From an uncultured Bacteroidota bacterium (GTDB lineage: Bacteria > Bacteroidota > Bacteroidia > Flavobacteriales > Flavobacteriaceae), in contig CACJHI010000001.1 of the NCBI GenBank assembly GCA_902593165.1, positions 62,001-126,000 on the forward strand: 64,000 nt of DNA, read 5' to 3'. The translations under genes and the position numbers were made by a program. The notes below the pieces were generated by a model that did no database searches, had not been told where the DNA came from, and worked only from the letters and a program-made list of their open reading frames with translations. Every line of letters starts with the position of its first letter. Within the stretch, counting starts at the first letter, position 1. Of the stretch, positions 7,484 through 20,330 are shown one piece after another.

Positions 7484-7552
7484 ACCTGAACATAAGTAGG
7501 TTAAGTTCATGGTAAGATTTGGGGCAAAAAAGGGGATTTATCCCCTTTTTTT
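7484..7552 (+). other. Structured purF 3' region with terminator
   Basis: The 133 bases between purF and sodA are not coding. A hairpin can form between ACCTGAAC (7484-7491) and GTTCATGGT (7505-7513), with one bulged base and a 13-base loop. It is followed by the strong hairpin GGGGA-TTTA-TCCCC with flanking A and T runs (7526-7552), which works as an intrinsic terminator in both directions, for purF and for sodA. Whether the first hairpin is part of a small RNA or just the purF 3' end cannot be told; no good -7 element precedes it. Confidence 0.5.
7526..7552. terminator. Bidirectional terminator between purF and sodA
   Basis: A GC stem of five pairs (GGGGA / TCCCC, four-base loop) is extended by A-run/T-run pairing on both sides, giving U-tracts in both transcripts. 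It lies directly after the sodA stop on one side and 108 bases after purF on the other. Confidence 0.85.
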
Positions 7553-8153
7553 ATTTATTTATGAATCTGTTATTAACTTCATCCCAATTAATTACATTAA
7601 AAAATGCATTAATATAATCAGGTCTCCTGTTTTGATAATTTAAATAATAAGCATGCTCCCATACATCAAGACATAGAATTGGATTTCCACCACAACCATT
7701 TGGCATAAGAGGATTATCTTGATTAGCTGTTGAACATATTTCTAATTTACCGTCTGGATGTGCACATAACCAAGCCCACCCTGAACCAAATCTTGTAGCA
7801 GCTGCTTTACTAAATTCATCTTTAAAATTTTCAAATGAACCAAAATTTGAATTTATGGATTCACTTATTTCTCCACTAGGTTCTCCACCTCCATTAGGTC
7901 CCATAATTTCCCAGAAAAGATTATGATTATAGAAACCCCCACCGTTGTTTCTCAATCCTTTATTTTCAAGGTCTAAAGAGTTTAATATATCCTCAATACT
8001 CTTTCCTTCATTATCAGTACCTGATATAATGTTATTTAGGTTATTTGTGTAACCATTATGGTGTTTTCCATAATGAATTTCCATAGTTTTTGCATCTATG
8101 TTTGGTTCTAACGCGTCAAAAGCATAATTTAATTTAGGTAATTCGAAAGCCAT
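7551..8153 (-). CDS. sodA: Superoxide dismutase, Mn/Fe family
   Basis: Dismutates superoxide to hydrogen peroxide and oxygen. The 200-residue chain carries the four metal ligands His27 (MEIHYGKHH), His77 (FYNHNLFW), Asp163 and His167 ([10 protein letters not shown]). The second-shell pattern, glycines in NNGGGFYNH and Gln145 in TANQDNPLM, is that of Mn-type rather than Fe-type enzymes, though metal use can be cambialistic. The frame extends upstream to 8216, but the preferred ATG at 8151-8153 starts the conserved [10 protein letters not shown] and lies just downstream of a clear promoter at 8166-8195. Confidence 0.94.
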
Positions 8154-8165
8154 AATTTTTTTATA

Positions 8166-8195
8166 CAAAATTAGGATTATTTTATTAAGTTTCAA
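8166..8195 (-). promoter_or_regulatory. sodA promoter (TTG-N19-TAnnTTTG)
   Basis: Reading the minus strand, TTG (8193-8195) is followed after 19 bases by TAATTTTG (8166-8173), an exact match to the Bacteroidetes housekeeping promoter in sequence and spacing. Transcription would start around 8158-8161, just before the ATG at 8153, which supports the shorter SOD start. Confidence 0.7.
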
Positions 8196-8203
8196 CACTA
8201 AAT

Positions 8204-11200
8204 ATGAACTACTCATTTAAGATTATAAACTCGTCTGCAGGATCTGGTAAAACCTTCAAACTAGCAATTGAGTTTATATCAAAGCTATTGGTTACAGAAG
8301 ATGATAATCACTTTAAATCGATGCTCGCTCTTACATTTACTAATAAGGCCTCTGCTGAGATGAAAGATAGAATTCTTTTATATCTATTGGATTTAAAGGA
8401 ACAAAGAAATGATGTAATTAAAGAACTAGTATTAAAAAAAACAAGTTTAGATGAGTTATATGTTGTTAAAAGGTCAGCCAAAATTTTAGAAAAAATACTC
8501 TATAACTATTCAAATTTTAATGTAATAACAATCGATAGCTTTACAAATAACATTATCAGTAGTATTGATGAGTCTAATCATAATGAAGATTCATTAGTTG
8601 AGTTAGACTCCGACATATATATTGATTTAGCAATCGATGATTTAATTTCAGAAATAGATGGTAATGAAGAATTAAAAAACTTACTAATTGAATTTGCCAA
8701 GTTTAAAATTACCGTTAATAAAAGTTGGGATATTACATATGACTTAAAAGATTTTAGCGTTTTTATTGATAAAGAATCAAATAAAGATCAGATTGAGTAT
8801 TTTAAAAAAATGGATAATAATCTATTATCTAAACTAAGAAAACAGATCTTAGATTTTAAGATTAAAAAGAAACATGAAATTATGTCTTTATTTGATCGAA
8901 CACTAAATATGATTTATGAAAATGGTTTAGTCGATAGTGATTTTAGAGGAGGTTATTTTCCAAAATATCTTAAGTCACAATTAAATGATTATAAATTTAT
9001 AATTAATGAATCTATAGAAAAATCTCTTACAGGTAAGTCAAATCTTTACAATAAAACTCTTGAAAAAATTAAAATTGAGAGAATTGAGTCAATCAGAAAA
9101 AATTTAATCAATAATTATCTTGAAATAAAGCAATTAGTATTAGAACTCTATAAAATTAATTCAACTCTACATTATCTTCCTTCCTTTTCTATTATTTCAA
9201 AACTTGAAGAAAAAATTCAAAAAATTCAAGATGAAAATGGCATTAGGTTAATTAGTAAGTTTAATAAACAACTTAATTTACTAATTCAACAAAACGATAC
9301 ACCATATATATATGAAAAATTAGGCTCAAGATTTACAGATTTTTATATAGATGAGTTCCAAGACACCTCTGAGCTTCAATGGAATAATTTAATCCCTTTA
9401 ATTTCAAACTCTATTCATAGTGAGTCACATGATGGTTTAAAAGGTTCGCTTTTAATTGTAGGTGATCCAAAGCAATCAATATATAGATGGCGAGGAGGTA
9501 AGTTTAATCAGTTTATAAATCTAATTTATGGTCAGACAAATCCATTTCATTTCAAACCAGATATTGAGAAAATAGATTCTAACTATAGAAGCTCAAGAGA
9601 AATTATAAATTTTAATTCTGATTTTTTTACTTATTTATCAAACCATTTAGAGCTAGATATATATGACTCAGATGATTTAAATTTTAAACAAGAATCATAT
9701 AAAAAAGAAGTTGGTCATGTATCTATAACTTCTTGTGAAAGTGAAATATTTTATTCAAAAATTGAAAACGAAATCTTGGACATTTTGGATAGAGGTTATG
9801 AACCAAATGAAATAGCTATTCTTGTAAGATTTAATAAACATGCCAAGGATTTAATAGAAAACATTAATAGTCCAAAATTCAATTTAATATCAAGTGAGGT
9901 TTTACAAATAACAAGTTCAAAGAAAATTCAATTTCTTATATCAATACTCAAATTAAGTAAATCTAAAAATGACTATTCAGAAAGAAAGCGAGTGATAGAT
10001 TTTTTATTTAAACATAATTATTTTGGCAATAACTATGAAAATTTAAACAAGTGTTTTCATATTAATCTTTCAAGAACTGATATAATTGATTTTTTTAGAA
10101 ATATTTCAAATCAAAAGTTTGATTTTAAATATTTTACTTCGCTAAATATTTTAGATGCAGTCAAATACTGTATAGACAATTTCCATATTAATATTAATGA
10201 TGCATATTTATATGCTTTTATAGATAATATCTTTGAATTTATTGAATCACATGATGACTCAATAAGTTCATATATCGAATATTGGGAAAAAAAATCAGAT
10301 AGTATTCATCTAAATATTCCGGAACACAGAGATTCAATAGTTATATCAACCATTCATAAAGCTAAGGGTCTTGAGTTCCCTTTTGTAATTGTGCCAATCT
10401 ATAATGACAGAATTAATGACAATAGAAATTCAGATCCAATATGGTTATATGAACCATTTAAAAGTTTTGATAGTCTAAAGTGGACATTAGTCCCAAAATC
10501 ACAAAACTTAATTCATATGGGAGATAATGCTAAAGAAATTTATGAAAGTAGTGAGCTTAACATCAAATTAGATACAATTAATCTATTATATGTAGCTTTT
10601 TCAAGGGCAGAAAGTGAGCTCAGTGTTATTTCCAAAAAAGATAATTTAAATAACAATTCACTTTCGTCAATCATACACGATTTTCTTGAATATAAAAAAG
10701 CAACGGAGGAATATAAAATTGGGCAAAAAACAATTAAAAAAAATGACCAAAACAAAATTGAGTCTAGTAATACTGAAAATAAAAAAATTAATATTATTTC
10801 AGCTTTAAAGAATTTAAGTCAAGCAGAATATATATCAGAACTACTTTCAAAAGTATTTGCTAAAGATAAGTCCTCTAAGGTTTACATATTTTTTCCAAAT
10901 CCAGATTTAATTAAATTAATTAAGCTTTTCGATGATGAATTAAATATAGAATTATGTAATTCATCACATCTCTTCAATACAAAGATTTTAGACTATGATC
11001 ATGCCTTGTTCCCAAACATGAATGAAGGATTATTTCCTTTCATAAAATTAAATGATTCTTGTATATCGGATTCTGAAAAAAAGAAATTTGAAAGCTTATC
11101 GCAAAATGAACAAGAAAAAAAGATCTCAGATATATTTTATAGAATAATAAATAAGGCTAAACAAGTTCACTTAATTTATGATTCAAGCATAAATTCTTTT

Positions 11201-12154
11201 GGGAGTGGAGAAGAAAGTAGGTTTGTTAAGCAAATTAAAATGTTAAGTTCTGGATTGACATTCATAAATAAAAAAGTGATTCAACAAAATCTAATTATAT
11301 CTGAAGATGAAGAAGTAAAAATTGTTAAGGACGATTTAATTTCCAAAAAAATTGAAAGCATATTGTCAGAGGGAGTATCCGCATCTTCATTGTCACTTTT
11401 TATCAAGAACCCATATTTATTCTATGAACAAAAAATACTTGGAGTAGATAATAAAGATGAATCAAAATACCTAAACTATATGGATCAAGGTACCCTTATC
11501 CATAGAGTAATTGAAAAACTCTACAAACCTTTTATCGGTAAAAATCTTGATGTTAGTGATATTAATTTTATGAAAAATCAATTACAAAATGAATCACGCA
11601 ACACATTTACTGAACTCTATTCAAAGGAGCCGACAGGGAAAAATTTAATATTTATTGAGGTTGTAAAAGAGTATATTGAGAACACACTTAATTTCGAGTT
11701 AGACCAAATAAAAAATCAAAATGCTAGGATCAAAATAATCTCTTTAGAAAAGAAACTGGAATATAATTTGAAGATAAAAAATCAAAATATAAAGCTTAAA
11801 GGTATAATTGACAGAATTGATATGTTCAATGATGGAGTTAGAATAATTGACTATAAATCTGGTAATGTTAATTCAGGAGTATTAGATATTAGAAATATTG
11901 ATAAAGTAAAAATAGACCATAAATATTCATATCTACTACAGTTACTTTTTTATAAATATTTGTTTGGATTGAATGATAAAAACATTCAGATAAAAGAAAT
12001 AGGAATATGTTCACTCAAGAAAAGAAACTTACCATTTGAATTTATAAAAAATCAAGCTATTTTATCAGTAGAAGAAATTCAAATGATTATTTCAGACATA
12101 ATAATTGATATAATGCAGACAGATGAATTTATTGATTCGGGTAATCCTTTATAA
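8204..12154 (+). CDS. Fused AddA-type helicase / AddB-type nuclease
   Basis: Predicted ATP-dependent helicase-exonuclease for processing DNA double-strand ends. The 1316-residue chain has a UvrD/AddA helicase: Walker [14 protein letters not shown] (9-21), Walker [15 protein letters not shown] (about 378-391), [14 protein letters not shown] (about 420), [11 protein letters not shown] (about 715) and motif [12 protein letters not shown] (about 792). After a Lys/Asn-rich linker (about 835-900) it changes to a sequence like the flavobacterial AddB-like protein: [11 protein letters not shown] (about 937), [18 protein letters not shown] (about 1059), [14 protein letters not shown], and a PD-(D/E)XK nuclease with IIDYKSGNV (about 1215) and QLLFYKY (about 1246). 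Other flavobacteria usually have these as two separate proteins. The AddA nuclease and AddB N-terminal helicase-like half seem to be missing. The 3' end overlaps the convergent crtI by 26 bases. Confidence 0.85.
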
Positions 12155-13601
12155 CTTCACTAGATACAATTTTTCCTGATATTAAAGATGGAGGCACTCC
12201 AGGACCTGGAACAGTTAGCTGTCCAGTAAAATATAGTCCCTTTATTTTCTTGCTTTTCATCTTTGGTTTAAAGATTGAGGTTTGAAATAATGTGTTTGCT
12301 AACCCATAAGCATTTCCTTTGTATGAGTTATAATCATCCATAAAGTCTTTAACACAAAATGATTTTTTAAAGATTATATTATCACTTATTTTTTCGCCTG
12401 AGATATCCTCTATCCTTTTTAGAACAATATTTAAATATTTTTCTCTTATTTCTTCTTTATCTTCTAGGTCTGGAGCAATGGGAATTAGTATAAAACAATT
12501 TTCACAGCCATCTGGTGCCATACTTTTATCACTTAATGAAGGGAAATTCAGATAGAAAAGTGGAGATTCAGGCCATTTTGGATTATCATATATTTCAGAA
12601 GCATGTTTATTAAAGTCAACATCAAAGAACAAATTATGATGAGGTAATTTTTTTACTTTTTTATTTAAGCCTATGTAAAATAGAAGTGAAGAAGGTGCAA
12701 AAACTTTTTTATCCCAAAATGAATCATCATAATTTTTTAAATGATTAGGAATTAGTTTCTCGGTGTGATTATAATCAGCTCCACTAATAACAATATCTGC
12801 AGGAAATTCTTTGCCACTTGAAATGACACCTTTAATTCTTTTATTACTAACCATTATCTCATCTACATTTTGATCTGATTTAAAATTTACTCCTTTTTCT
12901 TTTGCAAGTTTAATCATTGACTCAACAACTTTATACATACCTCCTTTTTCTGGGAACCAGGTACCCAGGCCTAAATCTGCATGATTCATTATATTATAAA
13001 AAGCAGGAGTGTTTTCTGGTTTAGCACCAAGAAATAAAACAGGGAATTCCATTATTTGACGTAGCTTCTTATTTTTAAAATATCTACTAACCTCTGATTT
13101 AATATTAGTTGTAAAGTATCTCAACCTTTTGATAGTTCCAGGAGTAACTAATTCTAGAATTGATTTCCCAGGTTTATAAACTACCTTTTCCATAGCAACA
13201 GAATAATTATTCTTAGCCTCAGCCATAAATTTTAAAAGATTTTTTGAAGCGCCTTTTTCAATCTTTTCAAACGTTTCACTTATTTTTTCAAGGCTATCTT
13301 CAATCTCTATGTAATCATTTTTTCCAAAATAAACTCTGTAAGCTGGATCTAATTTTTTCAAATTATAGAAGTCACTAACAGACTTGTCAAAGTCATTAAA
13401 ATATTTTTCAAAAACATCTGGCATCCAATACCATGATGGCCCCATATCAAAGGTAAATCCCTCTGCTTTAAACTTTCTAGCACGTCCACCAAACGAGTTA
13501 TTCTTTTCAAGTATTGTTACATCATATCCACTATCAGCAAGATATGTTGCTGCTGAAATTGAAGAAAACCCAGAACCAATAATTATAATTTTTTTAGTCA
13601 T
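12129..13601 (-). CDS. crtI: Phytoene desaturase
   Basis: FAD-dependent desaturase that turns phytoene into lycopene in carotenoid synthesis, associated with the membrane. The 490-residue chain starts with the dinucleotide-binding fold KIIIIGSGFSSISAATYLA and continues with ILEKNNSFGGRARKF and FDMGPSWYWMPDVF, typical of bacterial CrtI. The C-terminal signature FTGQLTVPGPGVPPSLISGK is present. No crtB or crtZ lies next to it; the only other carotenoid gene in the window is at 24295-24936. The start overlaps the end of a 31-codon membrane ORF, and the 3' end overlaps the helicase gene. Confidence 0.93.
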   Translation of the reverse strand: MTKKIIIIGSGFSSISAATYLADSGYDVTILEKNNSFGGRARKFKAEGFTFDMGPSWYWMPDVFEKYFNDFDKSVSDFYNLKKLDPAYRVYFGKNDYIEIEDSLEKISETFEKIEKGASKNLLKFMAEAKNNYSVAMEKVVYKPGKSILELVTPGTIKRLRYFTTNIKSEVSRYFKNKKLRQIMEFPVLFLGAKPENTPAFYNIMNHADLGLGTWFPEKGGMYKVVESMIKLAKEKGVNFKSDQNVDEIMVSNKRIKGVISSGKEFPADIVISGADYNHTEKLIPNHLKNYDDSFWDKKVFAPSSLLFYIGLNKKVKKLPHHNLFFDVDFNKHASEIYDNPKWPESPLFYLNFPSLSDKSMAPDGCENCFILIPIAPDLEDKEEIREKYLNIVLKRIEDISGEKISDNIIFKKSFCVKDFMDDYNSYKGNAYGLANTLFQTSIFKPKMKSKKIKGLYFTGQLTVPGPGVPPSLISGKIVSSEVIKDYPNQ

Positions 13602-16010: not shown

Positions 16011-19000
16011 ATGTTTTTAATTTTTGATACTGAAACTACCGGTTTACCAAAAAAATGGAGTGCTCCATTAACTGATTTTGATAATTGGCCAAGAGCAATT
16101 CAAGTTGCATGGCAGGTTCATGATTTGTCTGGAAAATGTATTTCTAATCAAAGTTATATTGTTTATCCTGATGGGTTCTCAATTCCATATGACTCAGAAA
16201 AAATTCATGGAATTTCAACACAACTAGGAAAAAAGATTGGAGTAGAAATTAGTTTTGTCCTGGATAAATTTCATGAAGACTTAGAAAGATCAAAATTTAT
16301 ATGTGGTCATAACTTAAACTTTGATGAAAAAATTCTAGGTTCCGAATACTTAAGATCCAAAGGAACTAATCCTCTTCAAGACTTCCCAAAAATTGACACA
16401 TGTACTGAAGAAACAGCTGGAATATGTATGCTAACTGGAGGACGAGGGAGAAAATTTAAGTTACCTACCCTTATGGAACTTTACAAGCATCTATTTAATG
16501 AAAAATTTGAGTCTGCTCATAATGCATCTGCTGATGTTGAAGCAACAGCACTATGTTTATTCAAATTATTAAAAGAGAGAAAAATTCATCCAAGTTCTCT
16601 TGTAAATAATAATGAAATTTTAGATGAGCTAACCAAGCTTGATCTCTCAAAAGTAATCGTTCCAGATATTAATCATATAGACTTATTTGAGGAGTCTAGA
16701 AAATTAAAAATAAATCAAAATGTTGAAAAAAATGAAGAACATGTAAAAGCTGAAATCAATAAACAGGAATTTAAATTTGGTCATCTTCACTCATATACTC
16801 AATTTTCAATACTTCAATCAACTTCAAAAATATCAGATTTATTAAAATACTCAATTGAATATTCTCATGATGCAATAGCTATTACTGATAAATCAAATCT
16901 GATGGGCGCTTTTCATTTTATCAAAACTCTAAAAAGTTACAATGAAAATCTGACTGAAGGACAAAAATATATTAAGCCAATAGTTGGTTGTGAATTAAAC
17001 ATTTGTGATAATCATTTAGATAAATCTAATAGAGATGATGGTTATCAAATGATCTTTTTGGCCAAAAATAAGAATGGTTTTAGAAACTTATCAAAACTAA
17101 GTTCAATAGCAAATATTGATGGATTTTATTACTTACCCAGAATTGATAAAAAAGTCCTTGAAGAATATTCTGAGGATATTATAGTACTCTCAGGTGGATT
17201 AAGAGGAGAGATATCATCTAAGATTTTGAATCAAGGAGAAGAAAAGGCTGAAGAATCATTAAGTTGGTGGAAGGATACATTTGGATCAGATTTTTATTTG
17301 GAGATTCAAAGACATAATCAGGAGAATGAAGATTATATAATACCAATTATTAAAGAGTTTAGCTCCAAATACGACATAAAAATTATAGCTACTAATAACA
17401 CCTTTTACACTACAAAGACAGAAGCTAATGCTCATGATATATTACTATGTGTTAGAGATGGTGAAAAGCAGTCAGTACCAATTGGAAAAGGAAGAGGTTT
17501 TAGATATGGACTACCTAATGAGGAATATTGGTATAAGTCAAAAGATGAAATGTTTGAATTATTCAAAGATATCCCTAATAGCATCTATAATATATCCGAG
17601 ATAATAGATAAAGTCGAACCATTTGAACTAGCAAGAGAAGTACTACTTCCAGACTTTAAAATTCCCAAAAAATTTGTTCAAGATAATGACTTCGATAACC
17701 AGAAAGGTCAAAATCTTTATTTGAGACATCTAACTCTTGAGGGAGTAAAATCAAAATATAAAGAAATAGACAAAGATCTACAAGAAAGAATAGATTTTGA
17801 ACTTGATGTAATTTCTAAAACAGGTTATCCAGGATATTTTCTAATTGTTCAGGACTTTATTAGCGCTGCAAGAGAGATGGGGGTATCTGTTGGACCAGGA
17901 AGAGGATCAGCAGCAGGTTCTGTTGTTGCATATGCTCTTGGTATAACGAGTATTGACCCAATAAAGTATAACCTTCTCTTTGAGAGATTCCTAAACCCCG
18001 ATAGAGTTAGCTTGCCTGATATTGATATAGACTTTGATGATGAAGGAAGAAATAAAGTAATAGAATATGTTGTAAATAAATATGGCTCTCAACAAGTTGC
18101 TCAAATAATAACATACGGAAGGATGGCTGCTAAGTCATCAATAAGAGATACAGGGAGAGTACTTGACCTGTCATTATCTGAAGTTGATAGGATATCTAAA
18201 TTAGTTCCAAACATGAAGTTAGGTGAGATTTTTTCAAAAAAAGAGATAGACTTAAAATCTGAGCTAAGAACTGATGAGTTTAGTAGAGTTAGTGAATTAA
18301 AAAAATTATATAATTCAAAAGATCTATCTGCTCAGACTCTCAAACAAGCTAGTCTATTAGAGGGTTCTCTCAGAAATACTGGTATTCATGCATGTGGAGT
18401 AATTATTACACCAAGTGATATCTCAGAATTTGTACCCATTACCAAAGCTAAAGATTCAGATTTTTATGTTACTCAATTTGATAATTCAGTTGTTGAAGAT
18501 GCGGGATTACTTAAAATGGATTTCTTAGGTTTAAAGACACTAACCATTATTAAAGATACTGTAAAGCTTATCAAATATAAGTATGATAAACAGCTATATC
18601 CAGAAGACTTTCCATTAGATGATAAAAAAACATATGAACTCTTTCAAAGAGGTGAAACAGTAGGAATTTTTCAATATGAATCACTTGGAATGCAAAAGTA
18701 TTTAAAAGACTTAAAGCCTTCCAATTTTAATGATTTAATAGCTATGAATGCTCTATACAGGCCTGGACCTCTAGAGTATATTCCATCATTTATATCAAGA
18801 AAAAATGGATCTGAACCTATTGCATATGATATACCAGAGATGGAGGAATTTTTAAATGAAACATATGGAATAACTGTTTATCAGGAGCAGGTTATGTCTC
18901 TATCTCAGAAAATATCAGGTTTCTCAAAAGGTGAAGCTGACTTATTAAGGAAAGCCATGGGAAAAAAAATATTTTCTTTAATTGAAAAATTGAAGCCAAA

Positions 19001-20330
19001 ATTTATGACAGGTGGACAAGAGAATGGTCATAGTGTTGAAATACTTGAAAAAATATGGAAAGACTGGGAGGCTTTTGCATCTTATGCATTTAATAAATCA
19101 CATTCCACATGTTATGCCTTAATAGGATACCAAACAGCATATCTAAAAGCAAACTATCCTTCAGAATATATGGCTGCTGTTCTGTCAAATAACATGAATG
19201 ATATAAAACAAGTTACCTTTTTTATGGAAGAATGTAAAAGAATGGGAGTTACAGTATTAGGCCCTGATATTAACGAATCATTCTATAAGTTTAATGTCAA
19301 TGAAGATAAGGCAATTCGATTTGGGATGGGAGCTATTAAAGGAGTAGGAAAAGGTGCTGTTGAAACAATCGTGAAGAATAGAAAAGATGGATCATATAAA
19401 GATATATATGATTTTGCCAAAAGAATTGATCTTAGACTAGCAAATAAAAAAACTTTTGAAAATCTAGTATTAGCAGGAGGTTTAGATTCATTTAATAATA
19501 AAAGAGCACAATATTTCCATGTGGATACAGATGGTTTAACTTTTCTGGAAAAAGCTATAAAACATGGAGCAAAACATCAAGAACTATTAAATTCATCTCA
19601 GATTAGTATGTTCGAGGATGGCGCAATTGATAGCCAATTAGACTTGACAATGCCTGATTGTGATGAATGGATTAATCTAGAAAGATTAAAAAAAGAAAGA
19701 GAAGTCGTAGGGATATATATATCTGCACATCCTCTAGATGATTATATAAGAGAGATAAATAATTTTACTTCAACAGGACTCTCATCTTTAAATGATTTAA
19801 GCCTTATAATTAATAAAGACATATATGTAGCTGGGATTATTAATGAAGTTGAACATCTACTAACAAAAACAGGAAATGGATTTGCAGTTTTCTCATTTGA
19901 AGACTTTAATGATCAATATCAATTTAGAATTTTTGGAGAGGATTATCTTAAATACAAGCATCTCTTAGTTGAGAATAAGATATTAAGACTTAGAATCTCA
20001 GTTAGGGAAGGTTGGGTTAATAGAGAAACAGGGAGAGTAGGTGACCCAAGAATTCAATTTTTGAACATGGAATTATTAGATGGAATTATTGACTCAAGTT
20101 CAAAAAAAATAACTCTTAAAATAGATTCTACTTCTTTAAATTTAGATGAAGTTCAAAAACTAAAAAAAACATTATCAAAGCACAAAGGTTCAAAGCCAGT
20201 TTACTTTGATATTATTGATCCAAAAAATGAATTTAAATTAAATATGATATCAGAACAGGCCAGAGTCTCAATTACCAAAGAACTTTTAGTATCTCTTGAA
20301 AAAGATGAGTTCATATATAAGCTTAATTGA
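16011..20330 (+). CDS. dnaE: DNA polymerase III alpha subunit with N-terminal exonuclease
   Basis: Main replicative polymerase. The 1439-residue chain starts with a DnaQ-type 3'-5' exonuclease domain (about 1-190): FDTETTGLP, HNLNFDEKIL and HNASADVEAT supply the DEDDh-type acids and histidine. A PHP domain follows from FGHLHSYTQFSILQST (about 256). The polymerase core has GPGRGSAAGSVVAYALG (about 628) and the catalytic aspartates in PDIDIDFDDEGR (about 670). An OB domain lies near 1266-1370. This exonuclease fusion is usual in Bacteroidetes DnaE and differs from Proteobacteria. The gene is divergent from metG, 72 bases apart. Confidence 0.96.
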   Translation: MFLIFDTETTGLPKKWSAPLTDFDNWPRAIQVAWQVHDLSGKCISNQSYIVYPDGFSIPYDSEKIHGISTQLGKKIGVEISFVLDKFHEDLERSKFICGHNLNFDEKILGSEYLRSKGTNPLQDFPKIDTCTEETAGICMLTGGRGRKFKLPTLMELYKHLFNEKFESAHNASADVEATALCLFKLLKERKIHPSSLVNNNEILDELTKLDLSKVIVPDINHIDLFEESRKLKINQNVEKNEEHVKAEINKQEFKFGHLHSYTQFSILQSTSKISDLLKYSIEYSHDAIAITDKSNLMGAFHFIKTLKSYNENLTEGQKYIKPIVGCELNICDNHLDKSNRDDGYQMIFLAKNKNGFRNLSKLSSIANIDGFYYLPRIDKKVLEEYSEDIIVLSGGLRGEISSKILNQGEEKAEESLSWWKDTFGSDFYLEIQRHNQENEDYIIPIIKEFSSKYDIKIIATNNTFYTTKTEANAHDILLCVRDGEKQSVPIGKGRGFRYGLPNEEYWYKSKDEMFELFKDIPNSIYNISEIIDKVEPFELAREVLLPDFKIPKKFVQDNDFDNQKGQNLYLRHLTLEGVKSKYKEIDKDLQERIDFELDVISKTGYPGYFLIVQDFISAAREMGVSVGPGRGSAAGSVVAYALGITSIDPIKYNLLFERFLNPDRVSLPDIDIDFDDEGRNKVIEYVVNKYGSQQVAQIITYGRMAAKSSIRDTGRVLDLSLSEVDRISKLVPNMKLGEIFSKKEIDLKSELRTDEFSRVSELKKLYNSKDLSAQTLKQASLLEGSLRNTGIHACGVIITPSDISEFVPITKAKDSDFYVTQFDNSVVEDAGLLKMDFLGLKTLTIIKDTVKLIKYKYDKQLYPEDFPLDDKKTYELFQRGETVGIFQYESLGMQKYLKDLKPSNFNDLIAMNALYRPGPLEYIPSFISRKNGSEPIAYDIPEMEEFLNETYGITVYQEQVMSLSQKISGFSKGEADLLRKAMGKKIFSLIEKLKPKFMTGGQENGHSVEILEKIWKDWEAFASYAFNKSHSTCYALIGYQTAYLKANYPSEYMAAVLSNNMNDIKQVTFFMEECKRMGVTVLGPDINESFYKFNVNEDKAIRFGMGAIKGVGKGAVETIVKNRKDGSYKDIYDFAKRIDLRLANKKTFENLVLAGGLDSFNNKRAQYFHVDTDGLTFLEKAIKHGAKHQELLNSSQISMFEDGAIDSQLDLTMPDCDEWINLERLKKEREVVGIYISAHPLDDYIREINNFTSTGLSSLNDLSLIINKDIYVAGIINEVEHLLTKTGNGFAVFSFEDFNDQYQFRIFGEDYLKYKHLLVENKILRLRISVREGWVNRETGRVGDPRIQFLNMELLDGIIDSSSKKITLKIDSTSLNLDEVQKLKKTLSKHKGSKPVYFDIIDPKNEFKLNMISEQARVSITKELLVSLEKDEFIYKLN

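What the first reader, a model, noticed from the sequence alone, without database searches (positions are those of the whole stretch)
8204..12154. Single-chain fusion of an AddA-type helicase and an AddB-type nuclease
Helicase motifs of an AddA-like UvrD protein are complete up to motif VI near residue 792, but the expected AddA nuclease tail does not follow. After a low-complexity linker the chain continues as the C-terminal half of the flavobacterial AddB-like protein: [11 protein letters not shown], then [32 protein letters not shown] and a PD-(D/E)XK nuclease (IIDYKSG, QLLFYKY). The AddB inactive-helicase half is missing. One gene may replace two, giving a compact end-resection enzyme. The two-gene arrangement in relatives is recalled from family knowledge.
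Basis: partly seen in the sequence, partly recalled or inferred. Interest (0 to 1): 0.72.

Follow-up and report, generated by a model that had tools for sequence, protein, structure and literature searches.

The report
Single-chain fusion of AddA and AddB
A group of small-genome, apparently marine bacteria has collapsed the usual two-protein DNA-break-processing machine into one shorter protein that keeps the motor and one of its two cutting domains and has lost the parts that normally read the stop signal, which makes it a natural test of whether that signal is needed.

Summary
The 1316-aa ORF at 8204–12154 is real and is a true AddA–AddB fusion. Residues 2–847 align end to end with AddA (hhalign E 1e-165); 921–1307 align with AddB 506–908 (E 6e-63). 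The chain is AddA motor, AddB 2A lobe, AddB nuclease; the AddA nuclease, AddB 1A/1B and AddB 2B are gone. Of 25 genus genomes, 19 carry it (14 intact, 1 frame-broken, 4 cut by contig ends), and no AddB piece was found outside it. Five two-gene relatives have addA and addB at the same place, between sodA and crtI, so it arose in place by deletion. It is under purifying selection. No other AddA–AddB fusion was seen in family, order and phylum samples; the first two row lists were cut off. Proposed mechanism, inferred and untested: a 3'→5' motor with only the 5'-strand nuclease and no Chi scanner, hence Chi-independent resection to 3' tails. A new variant of the AddAB kind.

The parts
8204..10744 (+). 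AddA-derived SF1A motor (residues 1-847): Walker A SAGSGKT 11-17, DEFQDT 383-388, motif [11 protein letters not shown] 794-802
   Evidence: hhalign: fusion 2-847 to AddA 17-883 of 1060, E 1e-165; Pfam UvrD-helicase and UvrD_C; motif conservation in 14 fused proteins
10745..10774 (+). junction (residues ~848-857); AddA nuclease tail (AddA 884-1060) and AddB 1A/1B (AddB 1-~260) missing here
   Evidence: gap between the AddA and AddB profile matches
10775..10963 (+). first half of the AddB 2A lobe (residues ~858-920; AddB ~266-330); AddB 2B (~330-505) missing at its end
   Evidence: AddB profile segment 243-338 found in 16 of 25 genus genomes at E 4e-8 to 2e-3; hhalign 88% probability, E 3e-6; alignment of 8 fused and 20 AddB proteins
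10964..11374 (+). second half of the AddB 2A lobe (residues 921-1057; NMNEGLFPF to the SRF region)
   Evidence: hhalign fusion 921-1307 = AddB 506-908, E 6e-63; AddB versus AddA profile maps this part onto AddA motifs V-VI
11375..12151 (+). AddB PD-(D/E)XK nuclease (residues 1058-1316): GTLIH, GIIDRID, IIDYKSG, QLLFY
   Evidence: Pfam PDDEXK_1 1058-1261 E 9e-21; GTLxH, DR and DYKS found in 14 of 14 fused proteins, Q and Y of QLLxY invariant
7551..8216 (-). sodA (Fe/Mn superoxide dismutase), left neighbour; next to addA in 12 of 18 two-gene loci
   Evidence: Pfam Sod_Fe; synteny
12129..13601 (-). crtI-like (name inferred) amine oxidoreductase, right neighbour, overlapping the fusion's end; also downstream of addB in 5 of 18 two-gene loci
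   Evidence: Pfam Amino_oxidase; synteny

Best explanation
A genus-wide, natural one-polypeptide version of AddAB. In an ancestor with adjacent addA and addB, deletions removed the AddA nuclease, AddB 1A/1B and AddB 2B, joining the AddA motor in frame to AddB's 2A lobe and nuclease (anatomy shown; order of events inferred). Proposed working (inferred): the AddA motor pulls the 3'-ended strand and unwinds a DNA end; the AddB nuclease, which in B. subtilis AddAB cuts the 5'-ended strand, degrades that strand; the 3' strand is left intact because its nuclease (AddA's) is gone. The domains that hold the Chi scanner are also gone, so nothing needs switching: the enzyme would behave permanently like Chi-modified AddAB and make 3' tails for RecA without Chi. 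The 2A lobe is probably kept because it packs against the nuclease and/or carries the 5' strand.
For: Anatomy. Intact and under selection: 14 intact ORFs in 25 genomes; dN/dS over 8 chosen pairs 0.115–0.195 for the motor, 0.11–0.25 for the 2A lobe, 0.11–0.28 for the nuclease. In-place origin: sodA–addA–addB–crtI synteny in 5 of 18 two-gene loci. Strand assignment and Chi role: passages of PMC4824097 and PMC4027173. RecA binds the helicase half of AddA, not AddB, in a two-hybrid assay (PMC5443536 passages), and that half is kept here. RecA (PF00154) is found in 18 of 25 genus genomes. Loss of the AddA nuclease tail with AddB's C-terminal part still matched: 22 of 22 genomes examined of a 0.5–0.6 Mb genus (g57), and G708.
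Against: No biochemistry. The strand roles are carried over from B. subtilis AddAB, whose AddB nuclease has a four-cysteine iron–sulphur cluster (PMC7430649 passages); the 3 fused proteins printed have at most one cysteine in the nuclease. The predicted structure is poor (pLDDT 43.7), so the 2A lobe rests on sequence profiles only. RecA was not found in the own genome (75% complete) or in 6 others. The AddB-part tree does not resolve where the fusion belongs. One of 15 full-span copies is frame-broken (G007). In at least 1 of the 22 g57 genomes (G535) the AddB match is in a frame with a stop. Whether two-gene relatives use Chi is unknown to me and untested.
Confidence: 0.6

Rival explanations
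1. One flexible nuclease serves both strands, as the single RecB nuclease does in RecBCD (recalled): the fusion is an unregulated exonuclease used for DNA degradation or defence, not a clean 5'-strand resector.
For: Only one nuclease remains; without a Chi scanner nothing known would restrain it. The geometry of the single chain is unknown (model unusable).
Against: The retained nuclease is the one assigned to the 5' strand in AddAB; unregulated double-strand degradation would be costly in cells that keep RecA (18 of 25 genomes).
Confidence: 0.2
2. The fusion works as a homodimer or with an unrecognised partner that supplies the lost AddB 1A/1B function.
For: AddAB, AdnAB and RecBCD are all multi-subunit (recalled); the AddA face that normally contacts AddB would be exposed.
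Against: No AddB 1-242 or 339-507 match at E <= 1 in 25 genus genomes; the immediate neighbours are sodA and an amine oxidoreductase. A diverged partner would be missed.
Confidence: 0.12
3. The motor belongs to a defence system (GajB-like) rather than to end resection.
For: PADLOC lists 19 hits, 18 GajB and one RTasHel.
Against: These hits lie within residues 7-819, the generic UvrD motor; AddA profile E 1e-165; no GajA-like neighbour among the flanking proteins scanned; locus syntenic with addAB.
Confidence: 0.04
4. Assembly artefact or decaying gene.
For: One genome (G007) has a frame break near residue 100 and six genus genomes have no copy.
Against: 14 intact ORFs at 52-97% identity, low dN/dS. 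Of the six genomes without a copy, four show no match to the locus and its flanks, one a 46-base match, and one a contig that starts within the right flank (a DNA search can miss diverged flanks).
Confidence: 0.02

Closest known systems
AddAB helicase-nuclease (two-gene flavobacterial AddA + AddB; B. subtilis AddAB)
   Same: AddA SF1A motor, AddB 2A lobe and AddB PD-(D/E)XK nuclease are homologous and, in relatives, in the same chromosomal place
   Different: One chain averaging 1316 aa (14 proteins) against 1965 aa for the pair (18 loci); no AddA nuclease, no AddB 1A/1B, no AddB 2B, hence no recognisable Chi-binding region
Tail-less AddA + separate AddB (22 of 22 examined g57 genomes of 0.5-0.6 Mb, G708, G059)
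   Same: AddA nuclease lost; AddB C-terminal part matched in the 22 and in G708, full-length AddB with PDDEXK_1 read in G086
   Different: AddB is still a separate gene; in G059 it runs off the contig before the nuclease
RecBCD / RecB
   Same: 3'->5' SF1A motor and one nuclease in the same chain (recalled)
   Different: The nuclease here is AddB-type; RecB equivalog cut-off not met (123.9 of 696 bits); RecC and RecD not searched
DNA2 and bacterial Bad (PMC7430649, passages read)
   Same: Single-chain helicase-nuclease
   Different: In DNA2/Bad an iron-staple nuclease precedes an SF1B motor; here an SF1A motor precedes a nuclease with at most one cysteine in the 3 proteins printed

Membership tests
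AddAB | AddA SF1A motor with motifs I-VI | tested here: met
AddAB | RecB-family nuclease at the C-terminus of AddA | tested here: not met
   AddA alignment stops at AddA 883 of 1060; the fusion's nuclease is AddB-type; the two-gene relatives scanned do have it (L040, L049)
AddAB | AddB C-terminal PD-(D/E)XK nuclease | tested here: met
AddAB | Separate AddB subunit with complete UvrD-like fold (1A/1B/2A/2B) | tested here: not met
   AddB profile over 25 genus genomes finds only the 2A pieces and nuclease inside the fusion (18 genomes); 7 of 25 have no AddB match at all (54-81% complete)
AddAB | Chi recognition region and its latch partner in AddB 1A/1B | tested here: not met
   the region is absent from the sequence; its location from PMC4824097 passages; Chi response itself not testable here
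AddAB | Four-cysteine iron staple in the AddB nuclease | tested here: not met
   at most one cysteine in the nuclease of the 3 fused proteins printed; the 6 two-gene AddBs printed also have fewer than four there, so this looks like a trait of the lineage and not of the fusion
AddAB | Heterodimer with helicase and dual nuclease activity | not testable with these tools
   needs purified protein
RecB (TIGR00609) | score above the curated equivalog cut-off | tested here: not met
   123.9 bits against 696.05
DNA2/Bad | iron-staple nuclease followed by C-terminal SF1B motor | tested here: not met
   domain order is reversed
Gabija GajB | GajB motor beside a GajA gene | tested here: not met
   the hits are generic motor matches; flanking proteins scanned are SOD and amine oxidoreductase

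The most novel reading that the evidence does not exclude
A whole genus of apparently marine bacteria has abandoned Chi-regulated end processing: deletions that follow domain borders turned the switchable two-subunit, two-nuclease AddAB into a single-chain, one-motor, one-nuclease machine locked in the recombination-promoting (5'-strand-only) mode.
Probability: 0.45. Interest if true: 0.77.

Novelty: new variant of a known kind. Interest (0 to 1): 0.64.

Why it matters
AddAB, AdnAB and RecBCD are large because they combine motor, nucleases and (AddAB, RecBCD) a Chi scanner (recalled). This natural enzyme keeps the motor, one nuclease and a bare 2A lobe, and drops the Chi-scanner domains and the nuclease that Chi controls. 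If it works as proposed it shows which parts are essential for end resection, gives a single-gene resection enzyme for structural and biochemical work, and offers a lineage in which the need for Chi regulation can be tested by comparative genomics.

Tried and rejected
A PDB sequence search with the AddB alignment found nothing at E ≤ 0.01, so the AddB pieces could not be mapped onto the B. subtilis structure; the fusion alone matches UvrD, AddA, PcrA, Rep, RecB, GajB and similar motor chains.

Rejected: 'linker' as low-complexity spacer (searches show AddB homology). Rejected: C-terminal nuclease derived from AddA. Rejected as another AddA–AddB fusion: G458, open frame 1438 aa (ORF 1408), is an AddB with ~470 extra N-terminal residues that give no AddA-profile match. 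G252's AddA open frame of 1494 aa contains an ordinary 1067-aa ORF with a separate AddB. The AddB-part tree places the fused clade beside L050/L051 with 0.05 support and is not used; the AddA-part tree groups the fused clade with L041, L081, L084, L078, L079, L040 and L083 at 0.975 support, without a resolved nearest sister.

Literature: searches (four words together; six phrases) returned 0 papers. A mention in an unread body, or in a subscription paper, is not excluded.

Rows left out: the AddA profile used 19 of 21 AddA proteins collected (tail-less L041, L042 left out); the AddB profile used all 20 (one cut by a contig end); alignments A2 and A3 used 18 loci (L058, L041, L042/L043, L052, L057 left out). 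dN/dS used 8 of the 91 possible pairs. The alignment used 8 of 14 fused proteins. G007 was left out of the 14.

Full report
OBSERVATION. The window carries an ORF of 1316 codons at 8204–12154 (+). Pfam finds UvrD-helicase (7–439), UvrD_C (best stretch 708–811) and PDDEXK_1 (1058–1261, E 9e-21). NCBIfam finds RecB/AddA-like helicase models on the first ~850 residues and an AddB model on 1059–1222, all below their curated cut-offs.

WHERE THE PIECES COME FROM. I took AddA and AddB proteins from relatives (19 tailed AddA; 20 AddB, one cut by a contig end) and compared their profiles with that of the 14 intact fused proteins. Fusion 2–847 aligns without a large gap to AddA 17–883 of 1060 (E 1e-165). 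Fusion 921–1307 aligns to AddB 506–908 of 915 (E 6e-63). A second AddB match (fusion 798–950 to AddB 201–362, 88% probability, E 3e-6) covers the supposed linker; its convincing part is fusion ~858–920 on AddB ~266–330, and I judge its two ends spurious. An independent test, the AddB alignment A2 (18 proteins) run over 25 genus genomes at E ≤ 1, found the same two collinear pieces inside the fusion ORF and nothing else: AddB 243–338 (E 4e-8 to 2e-3, 16 genomes) and AddB 508–909 (best E 1e-88, 18 genomes; one starts at 570 because its contig does). Nothing matched AddB 1–242 or 339–507. A direct alignment of 8 fused and 20 AddB proteins shows the shared pattern around 'KN-x-x-QAKY'. The AddB-to-AddA profile comparison maps AddB ~266–335 onto AddA ~529–602 and AddB ~498–590 onto AddA ~737–851 (94.5% probability, E 8e-8), that is, onto the two halves of the 2A lobe on either side of the 2B insertion (the domain names are recalled SF1 topology). 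So the chain is AddA 1A/1B/2A/2B, then AddB 2A, then AddB nuclease. The losses (AddA nuclease; AddB 1A/1B; AddB 2B) follow domain borders. The fused chain averages 1316 aa (14) against 1965 aa for the pair (18 loci).

HOW COMMON. In 25 genomes of the genus, 19 match: 14 intact full-length ORFs (1313–1320 aa), 1 with a frame break (G007), and 4 cut by contig ends (G014, G015, G018, G022). Six have no match (G001, G002, G003, G012, G013, G023; 54–81% complete). A DNA search with the whole locus and flanks found nothing in four of these, a 46-base match in G003, and in G023 a contig beginning in the right flank. These look like assembly gaps, though a DNA search can miss diverged flanks. Named records that hold the fusion or part of it are isolates AG-912-I19, AG-894-I17, AG-893-K11, AG-916-L03, AG-447-K04 and AG-893-B06 (some titled MAG) and the Flavobacteriaceae bin UltraPac_3515_G_bin_18. 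PMC12416821 uses AG-893 and AG-894 names for GORG-Tropics ocean single cells (passages); that these records belong to it, and the marine habitat, are inference.

Elsewhere the genes are two. In one search (100 genomes, 75 of them outside the genus, 71 of these with a match; row list cut off) AddA lies in frames mostly of 986–1103 aa and AddB in frames of 889–1003 aa, with short or split exceptions (among them G059, G085, G086, G094, G095). Family sample: 397 genomes, 390 with a match; among the rows listed only the 3 genus members match beyond AddA's end (one of the three in two contig pieces); the list is the best-scoring part. Order sample with the C-terminal 502 residues: 395 genomes, 350 with a match; listed rows other than the own lie in frames of 458–1051 aa, except G458 at 1438 aa (not an AddA fusion); list cut off. 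Phylum sample with the AddB alignment: 395 genomes, 103 with a match at E ≤ 1e-15; only the own genome exceeds 1148 aa.

ORIGIN. In the window and in four other fused loci with both flanks read (L053, L055, L056, L059) the fusion lies between sodA and the crtI-like gene. In 18 two-gene loci, sodA is next to addA in 12; addB is followed by a ~280–310-aa gene and then crtI in 5 (L040, L079, L081, L083, L084); addA and addB have no ORF of 120 codons or more between them in 7. So the fusion replaced a neighbouring pair in place. The AddA-part tree puts the fused clade with relatives of the same family (0.975, nearest sister unresolved); the AddB-part tree is unresolved.

IS IT FUNCTIONAL. Over 8 chosen pairs of fused genes dN/dS is 0.115–0.195 (motor), 0.11–0.25 (2A lobe), 0.11–0.28 (nuclease); residues 813–857 range from 0.11 to 1.21, on few sites. 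Core motor motifs and the nuclease GTLxH, DR and DYKS patterns are kept in 14 of 14. RecA (PF00154) is found in 18 of 25 genus genomes, not in the own, 75%-complete one.

MECHANISM (inferred). In B. subtilis AddAB one AddA motor moves on the 3' strand; the AddA nuclease cuts the 3' strand, the AddB nuclease the 5' strand; Chi, bound in the N-terminal helicase-like part of AddB, keeps the 3' strand away from the AddA nuclease (PMC4824097 passages; PMC4027173 passages). The fusion lacks the Chi-reading domains and the nuclease that Chi restrains, and keeps the motor and the 5'-strand nuclease. The simplest reading is a permanently 'post-Chi' resection enzyme. RecA was reported to bind the N-terminal, helicase part of AddA and not AddB (PMC5443536 passages), so that interface could survive. 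Two-gene relatives keep an intact-looking AddA nuclease: D, R, D, K, Q and Y of the motifs are invariant over 18 proteins, and PDDEXK_1 is found in both AddA proteins scanned that have a tail. So the loss is derived.

A PARALLEL. I searched 56 genomes, chosen mostly for small size, with the AddA alignment. AddA stops before the nuclease (match end 862–870 of 1049) in 22 of 22 genomes of a 0.5–0.6 Mb genus in another family (g57), in G708 of that family (881) and in G059 of the window's family (833); G130 ends at 841 in an 880-aa frame and was not examined further. Of the other 31, 25 match to position 1040 or beyond in one piece, 4 reach the tail in pieces or with a missing start, 1 (G395) is cut early and 1 (G144) has no match. 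All 22 g57 genomes and G708 have a C-terminal AddB match, though in G535 it is in a frame with a stop and in G594 there are two matches; in G086 AddB is 890 aa with PDDEXK_1. In G059 AddB runs off the contig before the nuclease. The 3'-strand nuclease is thus lost more than once while the 5'-strand nuclease mostly stays, which is what the proposed mechanism would allow.

WHAT IS NOT SHOWN. No activity, no oligomeric state, no structure: the predicted model is unusable. Whether two-gene flavobacteria use Chi was not tested. Other resection genes (RecJ, RecQ, RecF/O/R) were not searched.

VERDICT. A real, clade-wide gene fusion by deletion; best filed as a new variant of AddAB, not as a member in the strict sense: the AddA nuclease, a separate complete AddB and the Chi-reading region were tested and not met (a fourth feature, the iron staple, is missing too, but also from the two-gene AddBs printed). 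Interest 0.64.

Noticed in passing
L042, L041 and genomes G086 etc.: AddA lacking its C-terminal nuclease, with a separate AddB, in 22 of 22 examined genomes of a 0.5-0.6 Mb genus and in G708 and G059: repeated loss of the AddA nuclease.
   Followed up: partly
L087:3560-7541 (G007): The fused gene of G007 breaks frame at a homopolymer run near residue 100, and no crtI ORF follows it; real decay or sequencing error not settled.
   Followed up: partly
L040:10346-11182; L083:11915-12769; L084:2452-3306: A ~280-aa gene between addB and crtI in two-gene relatives has no counterpart at that place in the fused loci read; its function was not looked up.
   Followed up: no
window 16011-20330: DNA polymerase III alpha of 1439 aa whose first ~255 residues match no Pfam family at E 1e-5 but begin like a DEDD exonuclease (FLIFDTETTG; recalled motif).
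   Followed up: no
window 8154-8216: The sodA ORF's first 21 codons are absent from the sodA ORFs seen in relatives (which start at MAFELP or MSFELP), so its true start is probably at 8153, leaving a short divergent region before the fusion.
   Followed up: no
L088:1493-5719 (G458): An AddB with about 470 extra N-terminal residues in one open frame; origin of the extension not examined.
   Followed up: partly
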